Shown here: positions 8,844 through 56,974 of the stretch, one piece after another
How the letters are laid out: every line of letters starts with the position of its first letter
How positions within the stretch are numbered: the stretch's first letter is position 1
Notes under the pieces: model-generated
The model's input: only the letters and a program-made list of their open reading frames with translations
Told to the model about the DNA's origin: nothing
Databases searched by the model: none
Assembly (NCBI RefSeq): GCF_017115085.1
Contig: NZ_JABXKJ010000213.1
Location: 1-64,000, forward strand
DNA from: Nostoc sp. NMS7
GTDB taxonomy: Bacteria; Cyanobacteriota; Cyanobacteriia; Cyanobacteriales; Nostocaceae
DNA length: 64,000 nt
Direction: 5' to 3'
Translations under genes and position numbers: made by a program

Positions 8844-10166
8844 ATGAGCAACAAACCTAAAATAATTGTCCTGGATGATGACCCTACAGGTTCTCAAACA
8901 GTCCACAGCTGCTTGCTGCTAATGCGTTGGGATGTGGACACTTTACGCGCCGGGTTGCAGGATGATTCGCCGATTTTATTTGTGCTGACTAATACTAGAT
9001 CGCTAACGCCAGAGTCAGCTACATCTGTAACCATAGAAGTTTGCCAGAACCTAAAAATCGCCTTGAATGTTGAAGGGATTGACGATTTTCTGATTGTCAG
9101 CCGTTCTGATTCTACCTTACGGGGACATTATCCGGTTGAAACCGATGCGATCGCCCAAGAACTCGGACCCTTTGATGCCCATTTTCTCGTCCCAGCATTT
9201 TTTGACGGTGGACGCATCACCCGCGACAGTGTGCATTACTTAATTATTGGCGGTGTACCCACTCCAGTCCATGAAACTGAATTTGCCCGTGATTCAGTCT
9301 TCAGCTACCATCACAGTTACTTACCCAAGTATGTCGAAGAAAAGACTCAAGGACGAATTAGTGCCGAAGTTGTAGAAAGATTTCTCCTAGCCGATATTCG
9401 CGCTGGTAGTTTAGAACGCTTGTTACAACTCAATGGTAATCAGTGCGCTGTCGTCGATGGTGAAACTCAAGATGATCTCAACCGCTTTGCAGTAGACATA
9501 TTAGCAGCAGCAAGTCAAGGGAAACGCTTTCTATTTCGCAGTGCCGCCAGTATTTTAACAGCTTTAGCCGCTTTACCACCCCAACCCATTGCTGCCGAAA
9601 AGATGGCGCAGTACGTGCGACAAGGCAAACCAGGTGCAGTGATTGTTGGTTCCCATGTTAAAAAGACTACTCAGCAATTAGAGGCGCTGTTGCAAATAGA
9701 AGGAACTGTGGGAATCGAAGTGAATGTAGCGCGATTACTTGATGATCCAAATCAATCTGCTACACTGCTAACTGAAATTCAGAAAAGTACACGGGCGGTA
9801 CACGAAGCTGGCAAAACACCAGTAGTTTATACTAGCCGTCAGGAACTGAGTTTTAAAGATGTCAAAACACGATTGGAGTTTGGGACAAAAGTTTCAAGTT
9901 TATTGATGGATATTGTGCGCGGTTTACCATCTGATATAGGATTCTTAATCAGTAAGGGTGGTATTACCTCTAATGATGTTTTGAGTAGTGGACTCGCTTT
10001 AACTTCAGCCCGTTTACTCGGTCAAATTTTAGCTGGTTGTTCAATGGTGTTAACGCCATCCGATCATCCTCAATTTCCTAATTTGCCTGTAGTGCTGTTT
10101 CCAGGTAACGTCGGCGATGCTGATGCCTTGGGGACAATTTATCAAAGGTTGACTGTGCCAATTTGA
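8844..10166 (+). CDS. Four-carbon acid sugar kinase family protein (DUF1537)
   Basis: The family phosphorylates four-carbon acid sugars such as erythronate or threonate in bacterial catabolic pathways. The N-terminal motif IIVLDDDPTGSQTVHSC (residues 7-23) is the diagnostic substrate-binding start. SRSDSTLRGHYP (about 90-101) and the C-terminal SKGGITSNDVL and LFPGNVGDAD segments are also typical; the C-terminal domain binds ATP. Length 440 is normal. The partner aldolase and dehydrogenase genes usually found with this kinase are absent nearby, so the true substrate is unknown. The ATG at 8844 is the clear start, with AGAGAT upstream. Confidence 0.85.
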   Translation: MSNKPKIIVLDDDPTGSQTVHSCLLLMRWDVDTLRAGLQDDSPILFVLTNTRSLTPESATSVTIEVCQNLKIALNVEGIDDFLIVSRSDSTLRGHYPVETDAIAQELGPFDAHFLVPAFFDGGRITRDSVHYLIIGGVPTPVHETEFARDSVFSYHHSYLPKYVEEKTQGRISAEVVERFLLADIRAGSLERLLQLNGNQCAVVDGETQDDLNRFAVDILAAASQGKRFLFRSAASILTALAALPPQPIAAEKMAQYVRQGKPGAVIVGSHVKKTTQQLEALLQIEGTVGIEVNVARLLDDPNQSATLLTEIQKSTRAVHEAGKTPVVYTSRQELSFKDVKTRLEFGTKVSSLLMDIVRGLPSDIGFLISKGGITSNDVLSSGLALTSARLLGQILAGCSMVLTPSDHPQFPNLPVVLFPGNVGDADALGTIYQRLTVPI

Positions 10167-10179
10167 GATTTGAGACTTT

Positions 10180-10240
10180 CCTGCGGAACGCTACGCGTAG
10201 CTTGCTTCTCCAAAGGAGTACGGCTACGCTCAGTCGAACG
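10180..10240. repeat. Interspersed repeat (CTACGCGTAGC type)
   Basis: This segment, with GGAACGCTACGCGTAGCTTGCTTCTC and GGCTACGCTCAGTCGAACG-like words, belongs to a repeat family also seen at about 7845-7920, 42880-42925 and, inside lnt, at about 62905-62940. It carries no gene. Confidence 0.55.
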
Positions 10241-10389
10241 ATTTGAGATTAAAGAATCTTTTGGTTGATGTCGGACTAATGTTCCGCTACGCCAACCCCC
10301 TTGTGGGTGACACAAATCCAAGTTGCGCTGGAAGCGCACCAAAGGTGCGACCCAAAATTTAAAATCTGTTGTCTTTTGGCTAGTACTGC

Positions 10390-11454
10390 ATGACTTCTGA
10401 TTCTGCGATTCCCAATCTAAAGTCAAATTCTGCACTTCCTAATGCAGAATTTGACTCTATCGTTTCTGAGGTAGACGTAAATCCTACTGTTTCTGATCTA
10501 GAGTCAGATTCTATCCTCCCGGTTGCGGAATTAAATTCTGTCCTCCTTTATTTAAAATCAAATACTGTCCTTGGGGATGTAGAGTCAAATCCTGTTAATC
10601 CCGATGTAAATTCAAATACTGCTAACCCTAACCCAGATGTAGAGTCAAATACTGATGCGGCATCAGATTTTATCCTGACTGATTTAAATCCCGATGAGTT
10701 AGCATTACCAGGGCATCGCGTAAATGAGAATACTCAAGTCCAGTTAAAAAGTAAGGAGGGACGACTGTTATTAATTTTGCCACCAGAATCTCAAGTATCT
10801 GCCTCAGAACTCAGTTGGTCTGATATTTGGCAACAAATAAAACAGCGTCTGAATGCAGGCGATCGCTTCCGTATATCTAATAGCCCTGTGCATCTGATGG
10901 CACAAGACCGCCTAGTAGATGCCAGACAACTGCAAGAACTTGGCGAGGCTTTAAGTGAAGTCCAACTCCGGCTGATATCTGTCTCGACGAGTCGTCGTCA
11001 AACTGCGATCGCTGCGGTGACATCGGGGTATTCTGTAGAACAACTACAGCCGGTAAGTTCTCTGGTCTCCGAGTCAACAGCTACAGCCATACCCCAGGCA
11101 GATGCCCTCTATCTGGAAATGACAGTCCGTTCTGGAGTAGAAATTCGTCATCCTGGTACAGTAATTCTCTTGGGAGATTTAAATCCAGGTGGTATTGTAA
11201 TTGCAGATGGAGATATTATCATCTGGGGACGTTTACGGGGAATCGCTCATGCTGGGGCTGGAGGTAATAGTGAGTGTCTAATTATGGCCTTGCAAATGGA
11301 ACCAACCCAATTGCGGATCGCAGATGCTGTAGCGAGGGCACCAGAAAAATTACCGATGCAATTTTCTCCAGAAGTGGCGCATATTACGCCCCAAGGGATT
11401 CGCATCGCTAGGGCTAGTGATTTTTACAGAAACCAATTTACTAAGATAAATTAG
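10390..11454 (+). CDS. minC: Septum site-determining protein MinC with repetitive N-terminal extension
   Basis: MinC inhibits FtsZ assembly away from mid-cell and acts with MinD. The C-terminal beta-helix domain is clear: RSGVEIRHPGTVILLGDLNPG, then GDIIIWGRLRGIAHAGAGG (about residues 240-300). The first ~110 residues are unusual: a Ser/Asn/Asp-rich run of imperfect units such as DLESDSILPVAEL, YLKSNTVLGDVES and DVNSNTANPN, replacing or preceding a compact N-terminal domain. The total is 354 residues. minD follows after 297 bp and minE after that, all on the + strand. The ATG at 10390 is the longest start; one inside the repeat region is conceivable. Confidence 0.9.
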   Translation: MTSDSAIPNLKSNSALPNAEFDSIVSEVDVNPTVSDLESDSILPVAELNSVLLYLKSNTVLGDVESNPVNPDVNSNTANPNPDVESNTDAASDFILTDLNPDELALPGHRVNENTQVQLKSKEGRLLLILPPESQVSASELSWSDIWQQIKQRLNAGDRFRISNSPVHLMAQDRLVDARQLQELGEALSEVQLRLISVSTSRRQTAIAAVTSGYSVEQLQPVSSLVSESTATAIPQADALYLEMTVRSGVEIRHPGTVILLGDLNPGGIVIADGDIIIWGRLRGIAHAGAGGNSECLIMALQMEPTQLRIADAVARAPEKLPMQFSPEVAHITPQGIRIARASDFYRNQFTKIN

Positions 11455-11751
11455 CAGCCCTGAATATTTACTTAAAAGATGAAGAATACGAAAGATGAAA
11501 TATAGCGGTTTTCACATGGATAGAATACACTACTCTAATCCCTAATTTCTTTCCCCTAGAGAAGTGTATTGTACACAACCGAGGGTAGACGCTTCCTCGG
11601 CTTGTCCTCAGATATCGCTATAAAAAAATATTCATACCTCGCCCGAATCAGGGAGACCAGATATTTCTTCATACTTGATACGATACTTCATACTTTATAC
11701 TGCAATTTACGGTTTTATATTTCCTGAACCCTCATTGACCGCATTTCTATC
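11455..11751. other. minC-minD intergenic region with hairpin repeats
   Basis: No gene is seen. TACACTACTC...GAGAAGTGTATTGTA forms an imperfect hairpin around 11525-11575, and GTAGACGCTTCCTCGGCTTGTCC resembles a repeat near 31684-31720. minD may have its own promoter here. Confidence 0.4.
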
Positions 11752-12558
11752 ATGACTCGCATTATTGTGATTACCTCCGGTAAAGGAGGAGTGGGTAAAA
11801 CCACAGTTTCAGCAAATCTGGGCATGGCTTTAGCCAAAATGGGGCGTCTAGTTGCCTTGGTTGATGCGGATTTTGGTCTGAGAAATTTGGATTTGCTGCT
11901 AGGGCTAGAAAACCGCATCGTCTATACTGCGGTGGAAGTCTTAGCCAGAGAGTGCCGCTTAGAACAAGCCTTGGTGAAAGATAAGCGCCAACCCAATCTC
12001 GTACTCTTGCCGGCAGCCCAAAATCGCTCCAAAGATGCAGTCACACCAGAACAGATGAAGTTATTGGTGAATGCACTAGCGCAAAAGTATCAATATGTGA
12101 TCATTGATAGCCCCGCCGGCATTGAAAATGGGTTTAAAAATGCGATCGGCCCGGCAAAAGAAGCGCTAATTGTCAGCACGCCAGAAATTTCCTCAGTTCG
12201 TGATGCTGACCGGGTAGTGGGGTTACTAGAAGCACAAGGTATCAAGCGTGTTCATTTAATAATTAACCGCATTAGACCCTCAATGGTGAAAGCAAATGAT
12301 ATGATGTCTGTGCAAGATGTTCAGGAACTTCTCGCCATTCCCCTGATCGGGGTAATCCCTGACGACGAGCGTGTTATTGTATCTACCAATCGCGGCGAAC
12401 CCTTAGTGTTAGCGGAAAATCCCTCTTTAGCTGCCATAGCCTTTGAGAACATTGCTCGTAGATTAGAAGGGGAAAGTGTCGATTTTCTGGAGATCGACTC
12501 GTCCCAAGACAGCATCTTCGCCCGTCTACGAAGGTTGTTGTGGACAAAGATTGTTTAA
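11752..12558 (+). CDS. minD: Septum site-determining ATPase MinD
   Basis: MinD is a membrane-associated ATPase that recruits MinC and is driven by MinE. It has the deviant Walker [10 protein letters not shown] (residues 10-18), the switch region [15 protein letters not shown] (about 38-52), and [11 protein letters not shown] (about 118-128). The C-terminal amphipathic helix [13 protein letters not shown] would insert into the membrane. The 268-residue length is standard. The start [13 protein letters not shown] is unambiguous. minE begins 35 bp after the stop, so the two are probably co-transcribed. Confidence 0.96.
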
Positions 12559-12593
12559 CTTATTTTCCAGTCTCCGCCCCAGACCTATTCGTA

Positions 12594-12884
12594 ATGATTG
12601 AACTTCTAGAACGACTTTTTTTTCGCGGTCCTGATAGCAGTAGAACTCAAGTTAAACGTCGCCTGCAATTGGTGATTGCTCATGATCGCGCTGACATAGA
12701 CCCTCAAACATTGGAAAAAATGCGGCAAGAAATCTTAGATGTCGTCTGTCGCTATGTCGAAATTGAGACCGAGGGCTTGGAGTTCTCCTTAGAAAGCAAC
12801 CAACGAACTACAGCTTTAATTGCTAATTTGCCCATCCGCCGGGTGAAAGGTGTCATACCTGAGTGGGAAAGGGGTGATAAATAA
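12594..12884 (+). CDS. minE: Cell division topological specificity factor MinE
   Basis: MinE stimulates the MinD ATPase and confines the MinCD inhibitor. I place the start at the ATG at 12594 because [16 protein letters not shown] matches the membrane-binding and anti-MinCD helix at the start of MinE. The open frame runs 18 codons further upstream into the minD tail, but that part is not MinE-like. The resulting 96 residues include [17 protein letters not shown] and the C-terminal topological domain [18 protein letters not shown]. It is the last gene of the min cluster and is followed by a strong hairpin. Confidence 0.95.
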
Positions 12885-12976
12885 GTCTTTATAGTTTTAA
12901 TCGAGATTCGATAATTTTTATTGGAGTTTATAGTTAAGTTTCTGCAAGATTATCTATTCAACGGCGTTCTCGTAGT

Positions 12977-13011
12977 AATCGTGGTGACAGGGCGGCTTAG
13001 TCACCACGATT
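12977..13011 (+). terminator. Hairpin after minE
   Basis: A perfect 12-bp stem AATCGTGGTGAC / GTCACCACGATT with an 11-nt loop. No T-run follows, so it may be a terminator or only an mRNA-stabilising hairpin. Confidence 0.55.
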
Positions 13012-13076
13012 GCTCATTTGAGCCCTTAATTCTGAAGTAGTTTTTGCAACAAAGTCATCCTTTTTACCCCTCAAAT

Positions 13077-13493
13077 TTACTCAGTCTGATAGTGGGTAAG
13101 TGATAACGTCCGCGCTACACGATGGACAAGGCTTGAAGAAACATAGAGCAACATGAATCCAATCAGAGGATGGAGAACCTCTAGGTGAAACGGACTCTTG
13201 AGATGAATGCTCGCAAATTGGAGTCCAAGCAGGACAGGTAAACTGACGGCGAGAGATCGGATTCTGTCTGAGAATGGGGCGATGAACGACCCTCCTAGTA
13301 ATAGAAAGGATAGTCCACTATACCCTCGCACCAGCCAAACATGAATAGTCCACCAGGCAGGATCGTTGAAGTAGGCAACCCCAACCGTTAATAACTGAGC
13401 AATCAAGCAGAGGTTAAAAACGATTGAAGTCGTATAAAAACCGATTTGTATCCAACGTGTGGGAACACTCTTAATTTCTAAATTTGTGGTCAT
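13077..13493 (-). CDS. DUF6220-like four-helix membrane protein
   Basis: 138 residues with four hydrophobic segments: IGFYTTSIVFNLCLIAQLL, a second around GYSGLSFLLLGGSFIAP, a third SLAVSLPVLLGLQF and a fourth LHPLIGFMLLYVSSSLV. His residues in HVWLVRG, FASIHLKS and LHPL recur at positions resembling heme-binding small membrane proteins. I place it in the DUF6220 family from overall pattern; its function is unknown. It lies 10 bp downstream of the broken PfpI gene on the same strand, suggesting one transcript. Confidence 0.6.
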   Translation of the reverse strand: MTTNLEIKSVPTRWIQIGFYTTSIVFNLCLIAQLLTVGVAYFNDPAWWTIHVWLVRGYSGLSFLLLGGSFIAPFSDRIRSLAVSLPVLLGLQFASIHLKSPFHLEVLHPLIGFMLLYVSSSLVHRVARTLSLTHYQTE

Positions 13494-37440: not shown

Positions 37441-37572
37441 TTTAGAAACTTTTCCCCTTGAGTGTCCTTTTAGTATCGAACAGGTTATTGAACCCAAGTT
37501 TTTTGTCTAGTTAGAGCGTTTTTTAACTTTATTACTATATTTTATTCTTAAAACAGCGCAATGTTGGTTCGG

Positions 37573-37709
37573 AATATCGTGATGTTCTTTATGAATGTCG
37601 TGATGTTCTTTATGAATATCGTGATGTTCTTTATGAATATCGTGATGTTCTTTATGAATATCGTGATGTTCTTTATGAATGTCGTGATGTTCTTTATGAA
37701 TGTCGTGAT
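37573..37709 (+). repeat. 21-bp minisatellite upstream of ppsA
   Basis: Six complete copies of AATATCGTGATGTTCTTTATG and part of a seventh. The only variation is A/G at the fourth base (copies 2, 6 and 7 have AATGTC). The 98-codon open frame across it (MNIVMFF heptads) follows from the unit being a multiple of three and is unlikely to be a gene. Confidence 0.9.
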
Positions 37710-47401: not shown

Positions 47402-47790
47402 ATGAATAGATTTTTCTTTGTGATTTCTTGTCATCGTGCCTTCACAAAGTTAGCTCTTGGCGCGGCAGCTGCTCTAACCTGTAGCCAAGCCCTTCCTGCA
47501 AACGCTACTCCAGGCGGAGCTGGCTGGCAAGGGAAGTACACCCTCTCCCATCTGGTCTGACTGACCAGTTTTTCCATTATGGGTGTCCAGCGAATTTCCC
47601 AGTTGCGGTCAGCGGCGGGTTCCTTTCAAATTTAGCGGCCAAACCGGGAATGGTCGTCCTTGGTAATGGACCACAACTGCAATTAGACCCGACCGGTTAC
47701 AACGAATGGGCTTGGCTAATTGATTGGCCAAACGGAGCGCCGGCAGGATCGGCGATAAATATTCAAGTGCAACTGCTGGCAAATGTTTAA
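47402..47790 (+). pseudogene. Small exported protein with a one-base frameshift
   Basis: The ATG at 47402 starts a clear signal peptide, MNRFFFVISCHRAFTKLALG then AAAALTCSQALPANAT, and stops at 47558-47560 after 52 codons. In the frame one base off, good protein sequence continues: PLPSGLTDQFFHYGCPANFP, VAVSGGFLSNLAAKPGMVVL and DPTGYNEWAWLIDWPNGAPA, ending INIQVQLLANV and TAA at 47788-47790. Restoring one A near 47533 would give a single 129-residue secreted protein. The family is unknown. The end overlaps the frame of the next HTH gene. Confidence 0.65.
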
Positions 47791-48437
47791 CACCCTTTCA
47801 ACGGAAACTACTGCTAGAAAATTTGTCCAAAAGTTTACCTGAATCCTACCACCAACGAATTGAAATCATGTTGTTGGCAGATGAGGGAAAAACTCAAAGG
47901 TCGATTTGTCAAACCTTGGGATGTTGTGCAGCAACAGCAAGACATTGGATGCACATAGCCCGAACTGGGATGGCGCACCAATGGCAAGATTGCCCCATTG
48001 GTCGCCCGAAGGCAGTCAATGATGAGTATTTAGAACGTTTGAAAGAACTACTTAACAGCAGTCCTCGCGATCATGGCTATGTTTTTCGACGGTGGACAAC
48101 AAACTGGCTGGGGAAACATCTGACAAAAGAATTTGGGATTGAGGTGAGCGATCGCCATATCAAGCGATTGCTAAAACAGATGGGGTTATCAACATTACCA
48201 AAACCCAGCAATGGTGAACAGGCTCAAAGTTGCAAAATTTTGATTACTGACCTTAAATCGACAACTATTCCCGATAATTCGGAATTGTTACCGATTAACT
48301 TTGCCAAATTTGGAAAAGATGTAGACATTCATGGCGCAAGATATATCCACTCAGTTGGTTTCTCTGCAACAGTTCAACAATACTCTGGGTTATTCTCTTT
48401 CCACAGAGGAATATCAACATTGTCTTCAACAAGTTAA
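47724..48437 (+). CDS. Helix-turn-helix protein preceding the peptide exporter
   Basis: Two helix-turn-helix domains: LADEGKTQRSICQTLGCCAATARHWMHIAR (about 51-80) and a winged HTH-like segment LGKHLTKEFGIEVSDRHIKRLLKQMGLS (about 130-157). Similar proteins stand just upstream of peptidase-containing ABC transporters in Nostoc, so it may regulate the export genes. The start is unclear: the only in-frame start near the family-like LTPFQRKLLLENL is the TTG at 47724, whose first ~21 codons overlap the broken secreted-protein gene. The last ~40 codons overlap the ABC transporter in another frame. It may be 5'-damaged. Confidence 0.6.
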   Translation: MAKRSAGRIGDKYSSATAGKCLTPFQRKLLLENLSKSLPESYHQRIEIMLLADEGKTQRSICQTLGCCAATARHWMHIARTGMAHQWQDCPIGRPKAVNDEYLERLKELLNSSPRDHGYVFRRWTTNWLGKHLTKEFGIEVSDRHIKRLLKQMGLSTLPKPSNGEQAQSCKILITDLKSTTIPDNSELLPINFAKFGKDVDIHGARYIHSVGFSATVQQYSGLFSFHRGISTLSSTS

Positions 48438-51060
48438 ATTTATCAACCCAAAAGTCGGCAAGTTTTGGCAAGGAACTGATGCGGAATCGGGAATCTATAT
48501 TGCGATCGCTGGTAAAGTCAGGTTGCTAGATAGCTTAGATGAGTTAATCGCCACTTTAGAGATAGGAGACTCATTTGGGGAATTTACCTTGTTTAAGGAG
48601 GGTGGCTTTAAACCTTATGCAGCAAGGGCTTCAATCAACTTGCAACTGTGTTTTGTTCCGGGTGAGGTGTTGTGGCCATTGATGGCTAAATATCCTCAAA
48701 TTCGGGAGCATTTGTGGGCTAAGGCGCTGTCCCGGAGCCCCCAACAGGTGGACTCAGATCATCCCCCAGTCAGGGCGGCTGAGTCAAATACATATCATCA
48801 AATAGAGATTTTGTCAAGGACTAGGGATCTATCGGGTGAGAAAAAAATTAGCAAAGCCTATTTTCCCAATCCGACTCAGAAAGTCGGGCATTTATGGCAA
48901 CGGGCGATGCGGCGTTATCCGTTTTTTGCCCAACACAGTGCATCCGACTGTGGTGCAGCTTGTTTAGTGATGGTGTCTCGCTATTGGGGAAAACGCTTTA
49001 GTGTGAATCGTTTGCGAGATATCGCCAATGTAGATCGCAATGGCGCATCCTTGCGGGGGTTATTGACGGCGGCGGAAAGTATTGGTTTTGCTACACGCCC
49101 TGTGAAAGCTGGACTTCAACAGTTGGCGAAGCAAAAATTGCCTGCGATCGCTCACTGGGAAGGCAAGCATTACATTGTTGTCTACGAAATTACGTCCAAA
49201 TACGTCATTGTAGCCGATCCCGCCATTGGACAACGCACCCTCAGTCACGCCGAATTTAAAGCCAACTGGACTGGTTACACATTGCTGCTGCAACCGACAG
49301 CCATGCTCAAAGATACCAAAGAGACATCCACTCCCTTTTGGCAATTCTTTGAGTTGATGAAGCCTCATTCTTTGGTAATGCTGGAGGTGTTTATTGCTTC
49401 GGTATTTATCCAGATATTTGGACTCGTTACCCCCTTATTCACCCAGTTAATTTTAGATCGGGTGGTAGTGCAGCGATCGGAACTCACCTTAACAGCAGTG
49501 GGGTTAGGCTTGCTGATGTTTAGCCTGTTTCGGGTGGCGATGACAGGGTTACGCCAATATCTCCTAGACCACACAGCCAACAGGATAGACTTGGCGCTAA
49601 TTGTGGGGTTTATTCGCCATACCCTACGGCTACCCTTGAATTTCTTCGAGTCCCGTTACGTGGGGGATATTATCTCTCGCGTCCAAGAAAACCGTAAAAT
49701 TCAACGCTTCCTCTCAGGTGAAGCATTATCTATCCTGCTAGATTTACTTACCGTCTTTATCTATGTAGGATTAATGTTTTGGTACAGCTGGCAAATGGCG
49801 TTACTATCATTGTTAATTATCCCGCCTTTTGCCTTACTAGCGTTGATTGCCACACCTTTTTTACAAAGGATTTCCAGAGAAATCTTTAATGCTGTTGCCC
49901 AGGAGAGTAGTTACCTAATTGAAACCCTAACTGGTGTGCGGACGGTGAAAGCTACGGCGGTGGAACAAACAGTCCGTTGGCATTGGGAAGAGTTATTAAA
50001 TAAAGAGATAAAAACTAACTTTTCCGGGCAAGTTATTAGCAATCGGTTGCAAATCTTTAGTAATACCATTGAAGCGCTAATCACTACTGGTTTGCTATGG
50101 TTTGGGGCATACCAAGTTATTCATAACCAATTAACTATTGGGCAACTAGTGGCATTTAATATGCTGCTTGGGAATATTATTACACCATTTCAACGCTTAA
50201 CCGTATTGTGGAATCAATTGCAGGAAGTTGTGATTGCAGTTGAACGCATTAATGATGTATTAGATGCAGAGCCAGAAGAAGATTTACATCACCAACCACG
50301 CCAAAATTTACCAGAAATTCAGGGTCATATTCGCTTTGAGGGAGTGACATTTCGCTATCACCCAGAAAGCGATATCAATATCCTAGAGAATCTCAGTTTT
50401 GAAATTAAACCAGGGCAAATGGTGGCGCTGGTGGGACGTAGTGGTTCGGGAAAAACTACCATTTCTAAGTTAGTTTTAGGGTTGTATCCAGCTACAGATG
50501 GCAAAATCTTAATTGATGGACAGGATATTACCAGTATTTCCTTAAGTTCCTTACGTCAGCAAGCTGGAGTAGTTGACCAAGATACCTTTTTATTTGGCGG
50601 AACAATTCGAGAAAACATTAGCTTAGGACATCCTGGGGCAAGTTTAGCAGAGGTGATTGAGGCAGGACAACTAGCGGGTGCTGATGAGTTTATTAAAAAG
50701 TTGCCGATGGGGTATGAAACCCAAATTGGTGAAGGTGGGGGGTTATTGTCTGGCGGACAGCGACAACGGATAGCTATTGCCAGGGCTTTATTAGGTAATC
50801 CCCAATTATTGATTTTTGATGAGGCAACGTCCCATTTAGATACTGAGTCAGAGAGGATTATACAGCAGAATTTCAACACAATTCTTAAAGGAAGAACCAC
50901 ATTAATAATTGCTCATCGTCTTTCCACTGTGCGAAATGCAAATTTGATTTTGGTGCTAGACAGAGGCGTTTTGATTGAGAGTGGCTCTCATGAAGAATTG
51001 ATGGCGAAACGGGGACATTATTTTTATCTCAATCAACAGCAGTTACATGGGAGAGCGTGA
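48331..51060 (+). CDS. Peptidase-containing ABC transporter (C39, double-glycine leader exporter)
   Basis: Cuts leader peptides after GG and exports the core. Residues 30-125 form a cyclic-nucleotide-binding-like domain (YIAIAGKVRLLDSLDELIAT, then GDSFGEFTLF). The C39 peptidase has Cys207 in SASDCGAACLVMVS, His280 in GKHYIVVYE and Asp296 in VADPAIGQ. Six helices follow from about residue 340, then the ATPase: GRSGSGKTT, LSGGQRQRIAIARAL, LLIFDEATSHLD and AHRLSTV. All catalytic residues are present. 909 residues. The adaptor and isomerase genes follow, and GG-leader precursors lie convergently at 53880-56946. Confidence 0.94.
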   Translation: MAQDISTQLVSLQQFNNTLGYSLSTEEYQHCLQQVKFINPKVGKFWQGTDAESGIYIAIAGKVRLLDSLDELIATLEIGDSFGEFTLFKEGGFKPYAARASINLQLCFVPGEVLWPLMAKYPQIREHLWAKALSRSPQQVDSDHPPVRAAESNTYHQIEILSRTRDLSGEKKISKAYFPNPTQKVGHLWQRAMRRYPFFAQHSASDCGAACLVMVSRYWGKRFSVNRLRDIANVDRNGASLRGLLTAAESIGFATRPVKAGLQQLAKQKLPAIAHWEGKHYIVVYEITSKYVIVADPAIGQRTLSHAEFKANWTGYTLLLQPTAMLKDTKETSTPFWQFFELMKPHSLVMLEVFIASVFIQIFGLVTPLFTQLILDRVVVQRSELTLTAVGLGLLMFSLFRVAMTGLRQYLLDHTANRIDLALIVGFIRHTLRLPLNFFESRYVGDIISRVQENRKIQRFLSGEALSILLDLLTVFIYVGLMFWYSWQMALLSLLIIPPFALLALIATPFLQRISREIFNAVAQESSYLIETLTGVRTVKATAVEQTVRWHWEELLNKEIKTNFSGQVISNRLQIFSNTIEALITTGLLWFGAYQVIHNQLTIGQLVAFNMLLGNIITPFQRLTVLWNQLQEVVIAVERINDVLDAEPEEDLHHQPRQNLPEIQGHIRFEGVTFRYHPESDINILENLSFEIKPGQMVALVGRSGSGKTTISKLVLGLYPATDGKILIDGQDITSISLSSLRQQAGVVDQDTFLFGGTIRENISLGHPGASLAEVIEAGQLAGADEFIKKLPMGYETQIGEGGGLLSGGQRQRIAIARALLGNPQLLIFDEATSHLDTESERIIQQNFNTILKGRTTLIIAHRLSTVRNANLILVLDRGVLIESGSHEELMAKRGHYFYLNQQQLHGRA

Positions 51061-51213: not shown

Positions 51214-52743
51214 ATGATAAATACTTCATTATTAAATGGACGGGTTACTAACTCACTCTCAGAAGACACATCCCATCAGGAAACTTTAGCCCCACAAATA
51301 CCGCCCATATCAAGCAATGATTGGTCTGACGTTACCAAAGAATCACTTGATAGCTTGCCCCAGATTTGGACGAGGGGACTACTATATTTTTTGGTTGTAT
51401 TTGTATCTATATTTTTACCTTGGGCAATGCTCTCGAAAGTAGATGAAACAGGTACAGCTATAGGGCGGACTGAGCCTAAAGAAAAGACAATTAGGCTTGA
51501 TGCTGCTGTGGCTGGAACCGTTGCCGAAATTCGAGTTAAAGAAGGTGAATCAGTTAAGGCTGGGCAGACTTTATTGTTGTTAGAATCGGAACTAGTAAAA
51601 GCAGATTTGCAGCAGGCACAGGATAAGCTAGAGGGACAGTTAAACCGTCTTACTCAGTTAAATTCGTCCAAAAATCAGTTATTTGTATCTTTAGCAACTC
51701 AAGAGCAACAAAATCAATCTCAGCAGTTAGAAAAGCAAGCACAAATTGATCAAGCGCGACAGAGTTTGAATGCTCTAAAGAATGCCTATGAATTACAAAA
51801 ATATGAAAAGTTGGCTCAAGTTAATCAGGCACAACAAACCCTTAAACATACTCGCAATACTAGTAAATTAGTGGAGAGTAGCTTGGCAAGTACTCAGAGA
51901 GAAGTTGAACGCTATAGTAAACTAAAACAAGAAGGAGTTGTTCCAGAAATTAATGTAGTAGACAAGAACGATATAGCTCAAGAGAAGCAAAAACTATATG
52001 AACAAACTAAGTCAGATATAGAACAAGCTAAGTTAAGTCTGGCAGAACAACGGAGCAGTTACGAACGAAATCTTCGTCAAACCAATGCAGATATTGAACA
52101 GGCTGGATTGCGGCTAAAAGAACAGGAAAGGAGTAATGAAACTTTGACCCGTTCTTGTGAGTTAGCTGTCCTAAAAATTCAAGAACAACAGAAAAGTTTA
52201 GAAACAGATATCACTTCGCTGAAATCAGAAATCTCTCAAAATCAAAGGCAGATTGAATCATTAAAATTTCAGTTAGGACAACGAGATATCAAAGCTACTG
52301 CAAGTGGTGTATTGTTTCAATTGCCGATTGAAAAAGCTGGATCTGTTGTCCAGCCGGGGACAATGCTAGCGGAAATTGCATCACTTAATTCACCTTTAAT
52401 AATCCGGGCACAAATGGCAACTCCTGAAAGTGGTTCTTTGCGAACAGGATTACCAGTAAAGATAAAATTTGATGCTTATCCTTTTCAGGATTATGGGGTT
52501 CTACCAGGGGAGTTAATTAAGATTTCTTCTACTACTACACAAATAGATACCCCTAATGGAAAAGTTGCAGCTTATAACTTAGATATTGCCCTAAAACAGA
52601 ATTGTATTCCATCTGCCAATAAATGTATTCCCTTGCGTGCAGGGGATACGGCGACGGCTGAAGTGATTGTACGCCAACGTCGAATTATTGATTTCCTGCT
52701 CGATCCGTTTAAGAAATTGCAGCAGGGAGGGGTGAAATTGTAG
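51214..52743 (+). CDS. HlyD-family membrane-fusion adaptor
   Basis: Links the inner-membrane exporter to an outer-membrane channel. A cytoplasmic tail is followed by one membrane helix (RGLLYFLVVFVSIFLPWAML, about 54-73), a biotinyl-lipoyl-like half motif (AAVAGTVAEIRVKEGESVKAGQTLLLLES, about 93-122), a long Gln-rich coiled coil to about 365, the second lipoyl half (IKATASGVLFQLPIEKAGSVVQPGTMLAEI), and a beta-barrel region. 509 residues with the ATG at 51214. It lies 153 bp after the ABC gene; a hairpin (51081-51113) stands in the gap. Confidence 0.93.
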   Translation: MINTSLLNGRVTNSLSEDTSHQETLAPQIPPISSNDWSDVTKESLDSLPQIWTRGLLYFLVVFVSIFLPWAMLSKVDETGTAIGRTEPKEKTIRLDAAVAGTVAEIRVKEGESVKAGQTLLLLESELVKADLQQAQDKLEGQLNRLTQLNSSKNQLFVSLATQEQQNQSQQLEKQAQIDQARQSLNALKNAYELQKYEKLAQVNQAQQTLKHTRNTSKLVESSLASTQREVERYSKLKQEGVVPEINVVDKNDIAQEKQKLYEQTKSDIEQAKLSLAEQRSSYERNLRQTNADIEQAGLRLKEQERSNETLTRSCELAVLKIQEQQKSLETDITSLKSEISQNQRQIESLKFQLGQRDIKATASGVLFQLPIEKAGSVVQPGTMLAEIASLNSPLIIRAQMATPESGSLRTGLPVKIKFDAYPFQDYGVLPGELIKISSTTTQIDTPNGKVAAYNLDIALKQNCIPSANKCIPLRAGDTATAEVIVRQRRIIDFLLDPFKKLQQGGVKL

Positions 52744-52835: not shown

Positions 52836-52888
52836 GAAGATGCTATTGATATGTTATGGTGTCACTACAAATAATCAGGAGCAAAAAT

Positions 52889-53635
52889 ATGTCACAATCT
52901 ATTCCCATTACCAGCGAAGATATTCTTCAACAAGTCAAGCTATCTTACAAAATACCTGAGATAGTTGAGCAAATAGTCAGCCGCAAAGTGATTATATCTA
53001 TTGCTGAAGAAACTGGTATAAAAGTTGAAACAGAAGAATTACAAAAAGCAGCAGACTTATTCCGCTTAATGAATAAACTCACCAGTGCTGAAGAGACTTG
53101 GGCTTGGTTGGAAAAACATAGTTTGTCATTAGATGATTTTGAAGCAATTGTCTATAATGGTGTTATTTTTGGAAAGTTAAGTCAACATCTGTTCACAGAT
53201 AAAATCGAACCATACTTCTTTGAAAATCAGTTGGACTACGCTGGCGTGGTAATGTATGAGGTTGTTTTAGATGATGAGGACTTGGCGCTAGAACTTTTCT
53301 ATGCTGTTAAGGAAGGTGAGATTAGTTTCTATGATGTGGCTCACAAATATATCCAGGATACTGAGTTACGCCGAAAAGGGGGATATCTGGGGATAGTTCA
53401 ACGCAAAGATTTAAAGCCAGAAATTTCTCCTGCTGTCTTTGCTGCTACACCCCCTCAGGTTCTAAAACCGATAGTGACCTCCAAGGGATTACATCTAATT
53501 TTTGTGGAGGAGATTATCCAGCCAGAGTTGGATAACAAACTGCGTAATCAAATTCTCACTGATTTGTTTGATGAGTGGATTAAACAACAGATTGAACCAG
53601 TTGAATTAGTGAAAAATTTTGACTTAGATAGTTAG
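52889..53635 (+). CDS. Parvulin-type peptidyl-prolyl isomerase of the export locus
   Basis: SurA/PrsA-like: an N-terminal helical chaperone part (LQQVKLSYKIPEIVEQIVSRK, LFRLMNKLTSAEETWAWL), then a parvulin domain with RRKGGYLGIVQRKDLKPEIS, VFAATPPQVLKPIVTSKGLHLIFVEEI. I start at the ATG at 52889 (MSQSIPITSEDIL), which has CAGGA at the right distance, rather than 11 codons upstream. 248 residues with no signal peptide. Its place after the exporter and adaptor suggests that it helps the precursors fold or mature before export, as seen in related cyanobacterial loci. Confidence 0.85.
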   Translation: MSQSIPITSEDILQQVKLSYKIPEIVEQIVSRKVIISIAEETGIKVETEELQKAADLFRLMNKLTSAEETWAWLEKHSLSLDDFEAIVYNGVIFGKLSQHLFTDKIEPYFFENQLDYAGVVMYEVVLDDEDLALELFYAVKEGEISFYDVAHKYIQDTELRRKGGYLGIVQRKDLKPEISPAVFAATPPQVLKPIVTSKGLHLIFVEEIIQPELDNKLRNQILTDLFDEWIKQQIEPVELVKNFDLDS

Positions 53636-53817
53636 ATGAGTAGGTTTACAGGTTTAGGTAAAAAACTAGTATAGTTTGCCTAATAAACTCTCACATATAA
53701 CGAGGGGTTTGCTGTTAGTCTAAACTATATGAATCCGATAGGAATCATATTTGATATTTGAAATATACATAGGTTAGGCAATGACCACCAAAATTCGGGT
53801 ATACTGGGCATTGTCTA

Positions 53818-53844
53818 CCCTACACTTAAGATTCAAGTGTAGGG
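53818..53844. terminator. Hairpin between the convergent export and precursor genes
   Basis: A perfect 10-bp stem CCCTACACTT / AAGTGTAGGG with a 7-nt loop, between the isomerase stop (53635) and the stop of the 51-aa peptide (53880). Probably bidirectional. Confidence 0.55.
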
Positions 53845-53879
53845 AGTTTCTTCAACAGTTATAAATCAAGGGTTTTTGA

Positions 53880-54035
53880 CTACCTTCTAATAATAATTAT
53901 TATTATGATAAGTCCTCCCCTAATATTGACAGCATCGCTTTCTGACAATTCTGTTAACTGATCTAAATAGCTTTCAGAATCAGAAGAAAATTCGTTTCTA
54001 ATCGCGGACAAATTATCAATTTTGATTTTAGCCAT
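53880..54035 (-). CDS. 51-aa double-glycine leader peptide with poly-isoleucine core
   Basis: Too short for routine ORF lists. The ATG at 54035 follows AGGAG with 8 nt spacing. The product begins MAKIKIDNLSAIRNEFSSDS, continues ESYLDQLTELSESDAVNIRGG and ends LIIIIIIIRR. The acidic leader with L-x3-L-x2-L spacing and GG at residues 40-41 is the form cut by C39 peptidases. The predicted core has seven isoleucines in a row and two terminal arginines. The Ile run is encoded by a self-complementary A/T microsatellite (TAATAATAATTATTATTA), so core length may vary. The exporter lies 245 bp beyond on the other strand. Function as a bacteriocin or signal is inferred. Confidence 0.7.
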   Translation of the reverse strand: MAKIKIDNLSAIRNEFSSDSESYLDQLTELSESDAVNIRGGLIIIIIIIRR

Positions 54036-54178
54036 TGGTTTATCTCCTTTGAATTTATTTTCGCAAGGATTAGTTTAGAAATCCGCTAATCCTCATAACT
54101 ACATATTTTCATTTATAAAGCTGTTAAGGCAACTAGATATAAGTTTTTTTTAATGACATAATTGTTTCAATACTGACA

Positions 54179-54292
54179 TTAATATAATTGAAGCCATAGT
54201 AATCCACCATGAGTCAAACTCATCTCCTCATCTGTGAGTTCATAGAGAATGCTTTCGGAAGGATTCAAGTCAGATATTGTAATTTTAGTCAT
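54179..54292 (-). CDS. 37-aa double-glycine leader peptide
   Basis: Too short for routine ORF lists. The ATG at 54292 follows GGAGT (10 nt). The product begins MTKITISDLNPSESILYELT and continues DEEMSLTHGG, then LLWLQLY and TAA. The leader start MTKITISDL and the ELTDEE-x4-HGG end are the classic form of small secreted cyanobacterial peptides. The predicted core is only seven residues, hydrophobic, with one Trp and one Tyr. It is the gene before the poly-Ile peptide on the same strand, with 143 bp between them. A longer core could be lost; the stop is clean in the sequence. Confidence 0.7.
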   Translation of the reverse strand: MTKITISDLNPSESILYELTDEEMSLTHGGLLWLQLY

Positions 54293-54767: not shown

Positions 54768-55167
54768 TTAATTACTGGAATTAACCAAAGATGGAACTAA
54801 CTCTGATTCGGCTTCCCACCCTTGCGGCCATTGAATGCGATCGCTAGTAAAATGAAGTGGATCGTTTTCAGGCCAAGGAGCATTTATTGGTTCCTCAATT
54901 AGCCCAAACTCCCCATTATCAAATGGGTTTCCATCCGCACGACGCTGAAGAAAAACTCGCTCTCGAATACCGCCTTTTTCCTGAGTGAGGGCGCGATGAT
55001 GACAATAAGGATTATTACCTCTCTTATCAAAAAAAACGTGAGAGGGCTTCTGCTGTGGAAAGTTCATTTGTCCTTGTATGCCCAGCACGAGAACCGCAGT
55101 GTTGACAGGCTAGATTACACTTGAGTGTAATTTCCCAAACTGCATAACTAATTCGGCGATAAGTCAT
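54768..55167 (-). pseudogene. Radical-SAM peptide maturase with internal deletion
   Basis: The ATG at 55167 starts MTYRRISYAVWEITLKCNLA, followed by CQHCGSRAGHTRTNELSTAEAL. The CNLACQHC stretch is the CxxxCxxC iron-sulfur motif of radical-SAM enzymes, and the whole segment resembles the N-terminus of maturases that act on Nif11-type precursors. The frame stops at 55027. Shifted by one base, the sequence continues RGNNPYCHHRALTQEKGGIR and DGNPFDNGEFGLIEEPINAP, which looks like the C-terminal SPASM-like end of the same family. About 250 central residues that should form the barrel are missing, so catalysis is impossible. The Nif11 precursor gene is directly upstream. Confidence 0.75.
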
Positions 55168-55260: not shown

Positions 55261-55593
55261 CTAAATTATGTCATCCACCCGAATAACTCCATACAACAGT
55301 TGGTATGGTGGCCGTACAACTCCATATAATGGTTGGATTTTATGTTTCCCAGTTAATCCACCAAAAACTGCTGCCAGTTCTTTTTCACTTAAATCCTTGA
55401 GTTCACTTTCCCCTTCGGCAGACTCTAGCAATTTAGCGGTATATTCTTCATACTCTTCTAGAGTGAAATCGTAGCCCGCAGCTTTAACTATTTGGCTACA
55501 TTCTTCTTTACTATTAACGCCTTGAATTTGATTACGAAATGCTTCATCATTTGCTAGCTTTTCGTAAAAACCTTTGACATGTTCTAGAGACAT
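55261..55593 (-). CDS. Nif11-type leader peptide precursor
   Basis: Precursor of a ribosomally made peptide. Residues 1-79 are a Nif11-like leader: MSLEHVKGFYEKLANDEAFR, then SQIVKAAGYDFTLEEYEEY and a cleavage region LSEKELAAVFGG (GG at 78-79). The core (80-110) has two similar units, PLYGVVRPP and LLYGVIRVDD. Repeated Tyr-Gly-Val-x-Arg cores are what Nif11-linked radical-SAM enzymes modify. AGGAG is 9 nt before the ATG. The maturase that should act on it, right downstream, is broken, so the peptide may now be exported unmodified or not at all. Confidence 0.88.
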   Translation of the reverse strand: MSLEHVKGFYEKLANDEAFRNQIQGVNSKEECSQIVKAAGYDFTLEEYEEYTAKLLESAEGESELKDLSEKELAAVFGGLTGKHKIQPLYGVVRPPYQLLYGVIRVDDII

Positions 55594-55689: not shown

Positions 55690-55896
55690 TTATGCTATGG
55701 TGATGGGGAAATATCCGAGAATGATTCTCAAACCACCATTAATGCCTTTTTTCTCTTCATCAGACAGATCTGACAAGGACTCTTGTGTATCTAAAACTTG
55801 GTTGCGTCGTGCAGATGCATGATCAACTGCCTCTGCAATCAAGTCTGCAATTTCAATTTGACTTTTGAGATGTCTTTGATTCATTTCTTTCGACAT
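55690..55896 (-). CDS. CTB-family bacteriocin-like precursor, 68 aa
   Basis: The leader HLKSQIEIADLIAEAVDHAS, then ARRNQVLDTQESLSDLSDEE and GG at residues 54-55, is shared with the precursor at 56662-56946 (SQIEI-x-DLI, RRN-x-VLD, SDEE). The core LRIILGYFPITIA is 13 residues and hydrophobic. AGGAGA precedes the ATG. It sits between the cysteine-rich gene and the Nif11 gene. Processing by the C39 exporter at 48331 is expected from the GG site. Confidence 0.85.
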   Translation of the reverse strand: MSKEMNQRHLKSQIEIADLIAEAVDHASARRNQVLDTQESLSDLSDEEKKGINGGLRIILGYFPITIA

Positions 55897-55973: not shown

Positions 55974-56414
55974 TTAACCAGCAGCTAGTTTTGATACTTG
56001 AATTGCTAGTTCAGACGGATTGTAGTTATCTGTAATTACTTGCGGACAACGCATACAAGCTGCCTTGCCTTCTTGCTGCCACCACCGACAATCTCGGCGG
56101 ATAGAACAAGGAGGCAATTCCTCTGCGACTGCGGGTAATTTTTCGGCAATTTGTTTCGCTAGACGACAATCTTGTCCATCAAAATGCAGACAAGCTTTAG
56201 CGGCGCAAGGTGCTGCTGTGCGAAAAATTTCCGCAGGTGTAATTGGACTAGCTTTTGCTATCAGTTCATCGGTGATAGGTAGGGGCTGCTTGAGATAAGC
56301 TACACGGGGTTCTGCAACTGTTCCACTGATTATGCCGAAAACAACACTATCCTCAGATTCTGGTCTAGCACTGGGGCAAAGTGTAGTTTTATCCACAACA
56401 ATGTCTTCCATCAA
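55974..56414 (-). CDS. Cysteine-rich protein within the precursor cluster
   Basis: 146 residues, family not recognised. Eight cysteines at 13, 70, 75, 83, 103, 109, 120 and 123, with Cx4C, Cx7C, Cx5C and Cx2C spacings (CAAKACLHFDGQDC, CSIRRDC, CMRC). This could hold an iron-sulfur cluster or zinc. It has no GG leader and no signal peptide, so it is not a precursor; it may be an accessory redox or binding protein for peptide maturation. It is transcribed with the precursors. A terminal LAIQVSKLAAG follows the last cysteine pair. Confidence 0.65.
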   Translation of the reverse strand: MMEDIVVDKTTLCPSARPESEDSVVFGIISGTVAEPRVAYLKQPLPITDELIAKASPITPAEIFRTAAPCAAKACLHFDGQDCRLAKQIAEKLPAVAEELPPCSIRRDCRWWQQEGKAACMRCPQVITDNYNPSELAIQVSKLAAG

Positions 56415-56661: not shown

Positions 56662-56946
56662 TCAAAAATTAAATACTGGTCCTATAGGATTTCCTATGAC
56701 TCCTATAGGATTTCCTATGACTCCTATAGGATTTGCTATGAGTCCTATAATAAAAGGCTTAATAAGAATGCCAGGTATTATACCTACTCCACCTGCAACG
56801 CTTTTTGCTTCCTCATCAGACATAGATAACAAAGCTTCTTCTGAATCCAAAACTTCGTTCCGACGTGTCACGGCATTTTTCACAGCATCATCAATCAAAT
56901 CGTTAATTTCAATTTGACTGTTATATTTTCTTTCTTTGGCTTCCAT
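56662..56946 (-). CDS. CTB-family precursor with tandem-repeat core, 94 aa
   Basis: Leader: SQIEINDLIDDAVKNAVTRR, then NEVLDSEEALLSMSDEE and GG at residues 52-53, strongly like the 68-aa precursor at 55690. The core (54-94) starts VGIIPGILIKPFIIGLIA and then repeats NPIGVIG three times before PVFNF. The repeat is a 21-bp tandem unit in the DNA (56680-56742). I start at the ATG at 56946 (MEAKERKYN), which has AGAGGA upstream, not at the frame's first codon nine residues earlier. It is the first gene of the precursor cluster. Confidence 0.85.
   Translation of the reverse strand: MEAKERKYNSQIEINDLIDDAVKNAVTRRNEVLDSEEALLSMSDEEAKSVAGGVGIIPGILIKPFIIGLIANPIGVIGNPIGVIGNPIGPVFNF
56680..56742. repeat. 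21-bp tandem repeat coding for the NPIGVIG core
   Basis: Three copies of TCCTATAGGATTTCCTATGAC; the third has two substitutions (GCTATGAG). The unit is seven codons, so the number of core repeats can change without a frameshift. Confidence 0.9.
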
Positions 56947-56974
56947 CTTGATTTTCCTCTGATTTTTGACCATT

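What the first reader, a model, noticed from the sequence alone, without database searches (positions are those of the whole stretch)
53880..54035. Tiny precursor with a seven-isoleucine core ending in Arg-Arg
MAKIKIDNL...RGG followed by LIIIIIIIRR, with a good Shine-Dalgarno site. A highly hydrophobic poly-Ile core with a dibasic tail could be a membrane-active peptide. The Ile run is a self-complementary A/T microsatellite, suggesting a core that can expand or contract.
Basis: partly seen in the sequence, partly recalled or inferred. Interest (0 to 1): 0.72.

Follow-up and report, generated by a model that had tools for sequence, protein, structure and literature searches.

The report
Orphaned peptide precursor with polyisoleucine core
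A small cyanobacterial gene encodes a standard export tag followed by a ten-residue, almost pure isoleucine peptide; it belongs to a known family of peptide precursors, but the enzymes that usually accompany such peptides are missing beside it, so any product should be unmodified.

Summary
The ORF is real: window 53880-54035 (-), 51 aa, good Shine-Dalgarno, leader MAKIKIDNL...NIRGG, then LIIIIIIIRR. Its run of seven ATH codons is the only one, in any frame, in the 8.29 Mb genome.

The leader is conserved (68-83% identity, pairwise dN/dS 0.18-0.38) in Nostoc and relatives, while cores differ completely. The gene lies beside an intact C39-peptidase exporter, HlyD and PpiC. A conserved element sits 133-148 nt before the start codon in 15 of 16 subfamily precursors.

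13 of 13 relative loci compared, and 16 of 18, carry an APH-like kinase plus a HopA1-like lyase, the dehydratase pair of class V lanthipeptides. This fits the cyanobacterial 'Family 1A' precursors of PMC8153245. The window lacks the pair: about 4.2 kb present in Nostoc sp. S13 is missing at a junction that also truncates a neighbouring precursor. A nearby radical-SAM gene is also broken. The core has no Ser, Thr or Cys, so it could not be dehydrated or thioether-cyclised.

Verdict: a new member of a known precursor family, orphaned from its maturation enzymes, with an unusual core. Expansion/contraction and membrane activity are unproven.

The parts
53880..54035 (-). GG-leader precursor ORF, 51 aa; leader residues 1-41 (54035-53913), core LIIIIIIIRR (53912-53883), stop TAG
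   Evidence: leader conservation
53889..53909 (-). Seven ATH (Ile) codons; overlaps the perfect palindrome TAATAATAATTATTATTA at 53888-53905
   Evidence: each found at this place only in the 8.29 Mb genome
54155..54172 (-). Conserved upstream element TATTGAAACAATTATGTC, 137 nt before the ATG
   Evidence: 15 of 16 subfamily precursors carry it (4 or fewer mismatches) 133-148 nt before the ATG; alignment; for the window
54179..54292 (-). Second GG precursor MTKITISDLNPSESILYELTDEEMSLTHGG|LLWLQLY; core truncated at the junction
   Evidence: Leader DNA differs at 1 of 90 bases from Nostoc sp. S13, whose core is LLWLLVAAAILLYSTNAY
54185..54195 (-). Approximate junction (about 54189/54190) where some 4.2 kb of the S13 locus (ScyE-like, HopA1-like, kinase) is missing
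   Evidence: Alignment, sequence; pair absent from the whole window by tblastn
48331..51060 (+). PCAT exporter: cNMP-like, C39 peptidase (C207, H280, D296), ABC membrane and ATPase domains
   Evidence: Pfam (cNMP 26.9 bits, cut-off 27.5); PDB match 4ry2; dN/dS 0.09-0.10 against three relatives and catalytic residues
51214..52743 (+). HlyD-type periplasmic adaptor
   Evidence: NCBIfam TIGR01843 207.8 bits, just under its cut-off 208.65; dN/dS 0.14-0.18
52856..53635 (+). PpiC/SurA-type peptidyl-prolyl isomerase, convergent with the precursor
   Evidence: Pfam Rotamase E 7.6e-11; dN/dS 0.12-0.17
53818..53844 (.). Inverted repeat, terminator-like (T tail on the + strand), between the convergent PpiC and precursor genes
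   Evidence: 1 found, 0.4 expected in shuffles
54771..55167 (-). Remnant of a nif11-class radical SAM maturase (TIGR04103); codons 44-330 missing relative to S13
55261..55593 (-). Nif11-leader precursor, core with two LYGV motifs
   Evidence: TIGR03798 and PF07862 over cut-off
55690..55896 (-). Probable further GG precursor (..SDEEKKGINGG|LRIILGYFPITIA)
   Evidence: relatives; no family match
56662..56973 (-). Probable further GG precursor with NPIGVIG repeats
   Evidence: relative 72% in S13; no Pfam match, and only a YidC model far under its cut-off in NCBIfam

Best explanation
It is a GG-leader peptide precursor of the cyanobacterial family that normally accompanies an APH-like kinase and a HopA1-like lyase (RiPP 'Family 1A'), orphaned in this genome by loss of that enzyme pair from the cluster. 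Shown: conserved leader, intact exporter next door, conserved upstream element, missing dehydratase genes, and a core with no residue that they could act on. Inferred: the leader is still recognised by the C39 domain of the neighbouring PCAT, cut after Gly41, and the decapeptide LIIIIIIIRR is exported through PCAT/HlyD without modification. Its most likely present state is a relic or weakly used product of a cluster that has shed its chemistry but kept export; the Ile core arose after, or together with, loss of Thr/Ser as modification sites.
For: Leader 68-83% identical across 7 named cyanobacteria with unrelated cores. HTH-PCAT-HlyD-PpiC order in 7 of 7 named relatives compared over the locus. 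Kinase and HopA1 in 13 of 13 relative loci (in L126 the kinase is cut by the contig end) and in 16 of the 18 loci (the exceptions are L060, whose stretch ends before the kinase that its longer version L035 shows, and L061, a whole contig of 6.9 kb); none in the window. Identities: HopA1 PF17914 E 8.7e-63; kinase APH E 2.1e-11, and LxmK model 84 bits, below its 315 cut-off. A junction that also truncates the MTKIT core. Core without Ser/Thr/Cys: 2 of 117 precursors, the window's and one 8-residue core. Exporter under purifying selection with a complete C39 triad. Upstream element kept. The longest terminal branch and two changes at leader positions invariant in 13 others (G13R, F17S) fit relaxed constraint.
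Against: Window-branch leader changes (7 nonsynonymous, 4 synonymous, against 38:55 elsewhere) do not differ significantly, p = 0.20, so decay is not demonstrated. A genome-unique run of seven Ile is an odd outcome of mere drift. The core could not be aligned to any one relative's core better than to unrelated family cores, so an origin by Thr/Val-to-Ile change is not shown. The genome keeps one other HopA1 with a kinase next to it, on contig C126; I did not search the genome for further kinases. The leader is nearer to LEGE 12450 than to S13 while the MTKIT gene is nearly identical to S13, so the locus is mosaic and the 'deletion' may have been a recombination. One assembly only.
Confidence: 0.66

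Rival explanations
1. Neofunctionalised, selected product: an exported, unmodified, cationic surfactant-like peptide (Ile tail, Arg-Arg head) that self-assembles into beta-sheet fibres or acts on membranes.
For: Only ATH7 run in the genome and exactly placed after the leader; leader still constrained; the nearest leader's core is also ten residues, beta-strand-like by eye and Arg-ending, TSIRIYISLR. Designed Ac-I3K-NH2 forms fibres thanks to the beta-sheet propensity of Ile (PMC6269506, passages).
Against: No sister sequence to test selection on the core; 0 of 116 other family members has an Ile run above 3; no expression or activity data.
Confidence: 0.2
2. Plain decaying pseudogene: not expressed, core is slippage or mutational debris at an A/T palindrome.
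For: Two maturation systems lost or broken in the same cluster; two leader changes at otherwise invariant positions; mixed ATA/ATT run forming a perfect palindrome.
Against: Open frame, good ribosome site, upstream element kept; exporter constrained; such runs are not frequent in this genome.
Confidence: 0.25
3. Biofilm or cell-surface peptide like EbfG1-4 of Synechococcus elongatus, secreted by a C39 transporter and forming amyloid.
For: Same export logic (PMC4997328, passages); EbfG1-3 gave amyloid signs in a heterologous test (PMC9981879, passages); an Ile-rich core is strongly beta-prone (inference).
Against: No sequence relation was tested or seen; relatives' loci carry dehydratase genes, which the EbfG passages that I saw do not mention.
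Confidence: 0.08
4. Modified in trans by the HopA1+kinase pair on contig C126 of the same genome.
For: The pair exists (L119 9092-11468, 56% and 50% identical to the S13 pair).
Against: The core has no Ser, Thr or Cys to act on; no GG precursor of this family was found in the 20 kb taken around that pair by the pattern used.
Confidence: 0.03

Closest known systems
HopA1/phosphotransferase-associated cyanobacterial precursor 'Family 1A' (PMC8153245; passages, its section on genome mining read whole)
   Same: Cyanobacterial; conserved leader with a double glycine; highly variable cores without conserved Ser, Thr or Cys; several non-identical precursors per cluster; relatives lie beside HopA1 and APH-like genes.
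   Different: The window lacks the HopA1/kinase pair by which those clusters were found; the core has no Ser/Thr/Cys at all.
Class V lanthipeptides (cacaoidin CaoK/CaoY, lexapeptide LxmK/LxmY; PMC9486802, passages)
   Same: Relatives' loci encode the same two kinds of dehydratase protein.
   Different: No dehydratase beside the gene, no modifiable residue, no Cys; the kinase of S13 scores well under the LxmK model cut-off (84 of 315 bits).
Cyanobacterial bacteriocin clusters groups I/II (PMC3140520; passages, parts 1-2 of 5 read)
   Same: Long-type C39 ABC transporter with N-terminal cNMP-like domain, HlyD and SurA-like rotamase, several GG precursors.
   Different: Group I or II cannot be decided here; the M16 peptidase that they link with group II was not looked for.
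EbfG1-4/PteB of Synechococcus elongatus (PMC4997328, PMC9981879, passages)
   Same: Small GG-motif proteins exported by a C39 transporter; beta-prone products.
   Different: No sequence relation tested; no modification enzymes mentioned in the passages seen.
Designed surfactant-like peptides such as Ac-I3K-NH2 (PMC6269506, passages)
   Same: Short Ile tail and cationic head.
   Different: Synthetic, three Ile, capped ends; a likeness of composition only.

Membership tests
Family 1A HopA1-associated cyanobacterial precursors | Conserved leader with double glycine | tested here: met
   20 of 41 leader columns invariant in 11 rows, Gly40-Gly41 included
Family 1A HopA1-associated cyanobacterial precursors | Highly variable core | tested here: met
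   15 subfamily precursors with unlike cores
Family 1A HopA1-associated cyanobacterial precursors | Encoded near a HopA1 protein and a phosphotransferase | tested here: not met
   Absent from the 64 kb window; present in 13 of 13 relative loci and 16 of 18
Family 1A HopA1-associated cyanobacterial precursors | Falls in that paper's peptide network | not testable with these tools
   Their data sets are supplementary files, not readable here
Class V lanthipeptide | LanK-type kinase and LanY (HopA1) lyase in the cluster | tested here: not met
   the genome has one pair on another contig
Class V lanthipeptide | Core Ser/Thr and Cys for lanthionine or AviMeCys | tested here: not met
   Core LIIIIIIIRR
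C39/PCAT-exported double-glycine peptide | Adjacent transporter with intact C39 peptidase | tested here: met
C39/PCAT-exported double-glycine peptide | Leader cut after Gly-Gly and core exported | not testable with these tools
   Needs an assay
Nif11 or NHLP leader precursors | Match to the Nif11/NHLP leader models | tested here: not met
   No Pfam family at E up to 1; NCBIfam only a plantaricin model, E 0.047, 14.1 bits against a cut-off of 29
Wang group I/II bacteriocin cluster | Long-type C39 transporter, HlyD, SurA-like protein, GG precursors | tested here: met
   cNMP domain 26.9 bits against a cut-off of 27.5, HlyD 207.8 against 208.65
EbfG-like biofilm peptides | Needed for biofilm, forms matrix | not testable with these tools
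   No experiment possible

The most novel reading that the evidence does not exclude
A RiPP precursor lineage that, after losing its dehydratase, evolved into the producer of a natural, unmodified, self-assembling surfactant-like peptide (Leu-Ile7-Arg2) exported by a double-glycine exporter: a route from modified to material- or membrane-active peptide by editing the core to residues that need no enzyme.
Probability: 0.13. Interest if true: 0.68.

Novelty: new member of a known kind. Interest (0 to 1): 0.36.

Why it matters
The family to which it belongs is large (570 peptides in 183 clusters in PMC8153245), and that paper calls determining the products of such clusters a significant future effort. 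A member with no modifiable residue and no dehydratase beside it is a natural knock-out: it asks whether leader plus C39 exporter suffice for secretion, and whether these exporters carry unmodified peptides. It also suggests that the export half of such a cluster can outlive its chemistry.

Tried and rejected
Chance ORF: rejected by leader conservation and dN/dS.

Common A/T microsatellite of this genome: rejected; the ATH7 run and the 18-nt palindrome are each found at one place only.

Expanding Ile core in relatives: not found. A between-strain comparison was impossible: one genome per species is held; no plasmid record matched the locus DNA or a leader query.

Descent of the Ile run from a Val/Thr core by C-to-T and G-to-A changes (compare DVVTIIV in S13): attractive by eye, but the best subfamily windows (8 of 21 mismatches) are no better than those of unrelated family cores (6-8 mismatches) among 2857 windows, so it is left open.

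Relaxed selection on the leader: suggestive (approximate omega 0.46 against 0.18) but p = 0.20 on 11 changes; parsimony on a 123-base alignment.

Promoter scan: 6 promoter-like sites against 4.7 expected, so no evidence. RNA fold of 53800-53925 (-): z = -3.99, but much of it is the terminator-like stem; the palindrome itself adds a 7-pair A-U stem. Rfam on the window: 0 matches.

Literature: in the one search for polyisoleucine cores, 10 of 6,001 papers were listed and none of these ten holds the word. In three searches for HopA1 with lanthipeptides or cyanobacteria, listings of 15 of 50, 10 of 416 and 8 of 19 led me to open two papers; the other listed ones were not opened. A narrow search returned nothing. 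Most subscription papers are not in this library.

Little used: (first 60 bases of L097). (hairpin scan of the 5' region): 6 of 15 rows have a full nine-pair stem of the type AGGGATTGG/CTAATCCTT; the slice cut off the second arm in the window's own row, so it is a side note only.

Full report
OBSERVATION. The peptide is MAKIKIDNLSAIRNEFSSDSESYLDQLTELSESDAVNIRGG followed by LIIIIIIIRR. The seven Ile codons are ATC ATA ATA ATA ATT ATT ATT. A pattern scan of the whole genome (8,287,246 bases) for seven ATH codons in any frame on either strand finds this one place, and the 18-base palindrome TAATAATAATTATTATTA is found at this place alone. It is therefore not one of many A/T microsatellites; Tandem Repeats Finder at score 30 reports no array there.

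THE LEADER IS REAL AND CONSERVED. A search of 59 whole genomes, the window's own included, gave a match at E up to 1 in 29, mostly weak; besides the own genome two had matches below 1e-14. Searching the genus (53 genomes, own included; 11 with a match at E up to 0.01) added a third strong one. A scan of GTDB contigs gave 18 loci; the seven best are from Nostoc sp. LEGE 12450, N. punctiforme NIES-2108, Nostoc sp. S13, Nostoc sp. FACHB-280, Microseira wollei, Atlanticothrix silvestris and Nostoc sp. B(2019). With a profile of eleven leaders, 118 of 217 family genomes and 79 of 388 order genomes have a match at E up to 1e-6, most of them more distant members. Pairwise dN/dS of the 41-codon leader between the window and 13 relatives is 0.18-0.38; the median among the others is 0.17.

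THE CORE IS HYPERVARIABLE. Cores behind nearly the same leader include TSIRIYISLR, TTWTIVTVTLLLRSDSR, ITPVIIITLTPFLLG, TSVVIIHVHSHPPAYL, TWITTRTVIPLF and LIITTPTTTIPTTTIPTITTTPTTTRTPPTTWYC. Among the 117 distinct precursors that my pattern picked from the loci fetched, the largest Ile run outside the window is 3 (2 of 116), and only two cores lack Ser, Thr and Cys: the window's and an 8-residue one. The 14 other subfamily cores have 3 to 18 Ser/Thr each. The nearest leader (LEGE 12450, 83%) also has a ten-residue core that ends in Arg.

THE NEIGHBOURHOOD. On the plus strand and convergent with the precursor lie a C39-peptidase ABC exporter (48331-51060), HlyD (51214-52743) and a PpiC/SurA-type rotamase (52856-53635). 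The exporter matches PCAT1-type structures (4ry2, E 1.7e-24), keeps the C39 residues C207, H280 and D296, Walker A and LSGGQ, and shows dN/dS of about 0.1 against three relatives. On the minus strand follow a second GG precursor, a radical-SAM remnant and a Nif11 precursor, and two more probable GG precursors without any family match over a cut-off. A terminator-like inverted repeat separates PpiC from the precursor.

WHAT IS MISSING. In 13 of 13 relative loci compared the stretch also holds a kinase of about 386 aa and a protein of about 365 aa (in L126 the kinase is cut by the contig end). These loci were picked for their leaders, some only distantly like the window's (L033-L035, L127). In the 18 loci, 16 show both; L060 shows HopA1 alone because its stretch ends there (L035, a longer stretch of the same contig, shows both), and L061, a whole contig of 6.9 kb, shows neither. 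Pfam names the S13 pair APH (2.1e-11) and HopA1 (8.7e-63); the kinase also matches the class V lanthipeptide model LxmK, at 84 bits, far below its cut-off of 315. Two such proteins together dehydrate Ser/Thr in cacaoidin biosynthesis (PMC9486802, passages). The window holds neither. Aligned with S13, the window runs along the S13 MTKIT precursor up to ...CTATGGCTTC in its core and then continues in the region upstream of the MATIKI precursor. In S13 these points are about 4.2 kb apart (L032 about 9110-13325) and enclose a ScyE-like gene, HopA1 and the kinase. The MTKIT leader differs at 1 of 90 bases from S13, but its core is cut from LLWLLVAAAILLYSTNAY to LLWLQLY. The nif11-class radical-SAM gene, full-length in S13 (TIGR04103, 837 bits), survives in the window only as stretches matching codons 1-43 and 331-421. 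Two maturation systems have thus been lost while export was kept. The genome has one other HopA1, with a kinase next to it, on contig C126, 56% and 50% identical to the S13 pair; I did not search the genome for lone kinases.

REGULATION. A sequence like TAYTGAAACAWTTATGTC lies 133-148 nt before the start codon of 15 of 16 subfamily precursors, at 4 or fewer mismatches to the window's copy (which matches by construction); the exception is the second of two tandem genes in S13. Four precursors of other types and the two MTKIT genes that I entered have none at that distance. Of 33 matches in the nine stretches, 15 are those, 4 lie further upstream of subfamily genes and 14 lie elsewhere, two of these at 3 or fewer mismatches. 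The rate in shuffled sequence is 1.7e-5 per position. The rows are related by descent, so this shows conservation, not independent origin. The poly-Ile gene has kept this element; the junction stops just short of it.

HOW IT MOST LIKELY WORKS. Shown: leader, exporter, upstream element, missing enzymes, unmodifiable core. Inferred from known C39/PCAT systems: cleavage after Gly41 and export of LIIIIIIIRR. No dehydration or thioether can be made on this core, whatever enzymes the cell has. Whether the product has a use is open. For decay speak the lost enzymes, the two leader changes at positions invariant in 13 others, and the longest terminal branch, but the test of relaxed constraint gives p = 0.20. 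For use speak the singular core and the kept upstream region. Designed peptides with an Ile tail and a cationic head assemble into beta-sheet fibres (PMC6269506, passages), and GG peptides of Synechococcus elongatus gave amyloid signs in a test system (PMC9981879, passages); both are likenesses, not tests.

WHERE IT BELONGS. The description of 'Family 1A' in PMC8153245 (section read) fits: 570 peptides in 183 clusters, exclusive to Cyanobacteria, conserved leader with double glycine, variable cores without conserved Ser, Thr or Cys, near HopA1 and mostly a phosphotransferase. I could not check identity with their data set. By descent the window's gene looks like a member; by gene content its cluster fails the defining feature, so it is best called an orphaned member. 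The cluster's export half is of the long-transporter, HlyD, SurA type of PMC3140520.

LIMITS. The genome is a draft of 271 contigs and the junctions rest on one assembly. The 117-precursor set depends on a pattern that I wrote. Subfamily statistics use few, related sequences.

Noticed in passing
window 47724-48437 and 48331 onward (+): An HTH protein ORF overlaps the start of the PCAT gene by 107 nt in another frame; the overlap is kept in 7 of the 8 relative loci where both were seen (not in L035); possible translational coupling.
   Followed up: partly
window 54155-54172 (-) and relatives: Conserved element about 145 nt before the ATG of subfamily precursors, followed by a less regular inverted repeat of the type AGGGATTGG...CTAATCCTT in the 5' region.
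   Followed up: partly
window 54417 (+); L032 13552; L122 14675; L123 14323; L124 14847: Weaker matches (4 mismatches) to the same element on the opposite strand lie upstream of MTKIT and of kinase genes.
   Followed up: no
window 55261-55593 (-): Nif11-leader precursor with two LYGV motifs beside the remnant of a radical-SAM maturase; XYG motifs recall spliceotides (recalled, not tested).
   Followed up: no
L033 1920-2874, L034 9213-10150: Precursors with alternating cores such as SVTVTVTVSWTWTWTW beside kinase, HopA1 and an aldo/keto reductase; striking beta-strand or dehydroamino-acid candidates.
   Followed up: no
L120 9083-8961 (-): Third LEGE 12450 precursor with an in-frame TAA just before Gly-Gly: another decayed member.
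   Followed up: no
L119 9092-11468 (-): HopA1 plus kinase pair in the window's own genome with no family precursor found, by my pattern, in the 20 kb read.
   Followed up: partly
window 55974-56414 (-): Conserved Cys-containing protein of about 145 aa (76-89% identity in the four loci where it was seen); no Pfam or NCBIfam match at E up to 0.01 for the S13 copy.
   Followed up: no
window 37572-37709: 21-base tandem repeat, 6.6 copies, 97% matches.
   Followed up: no
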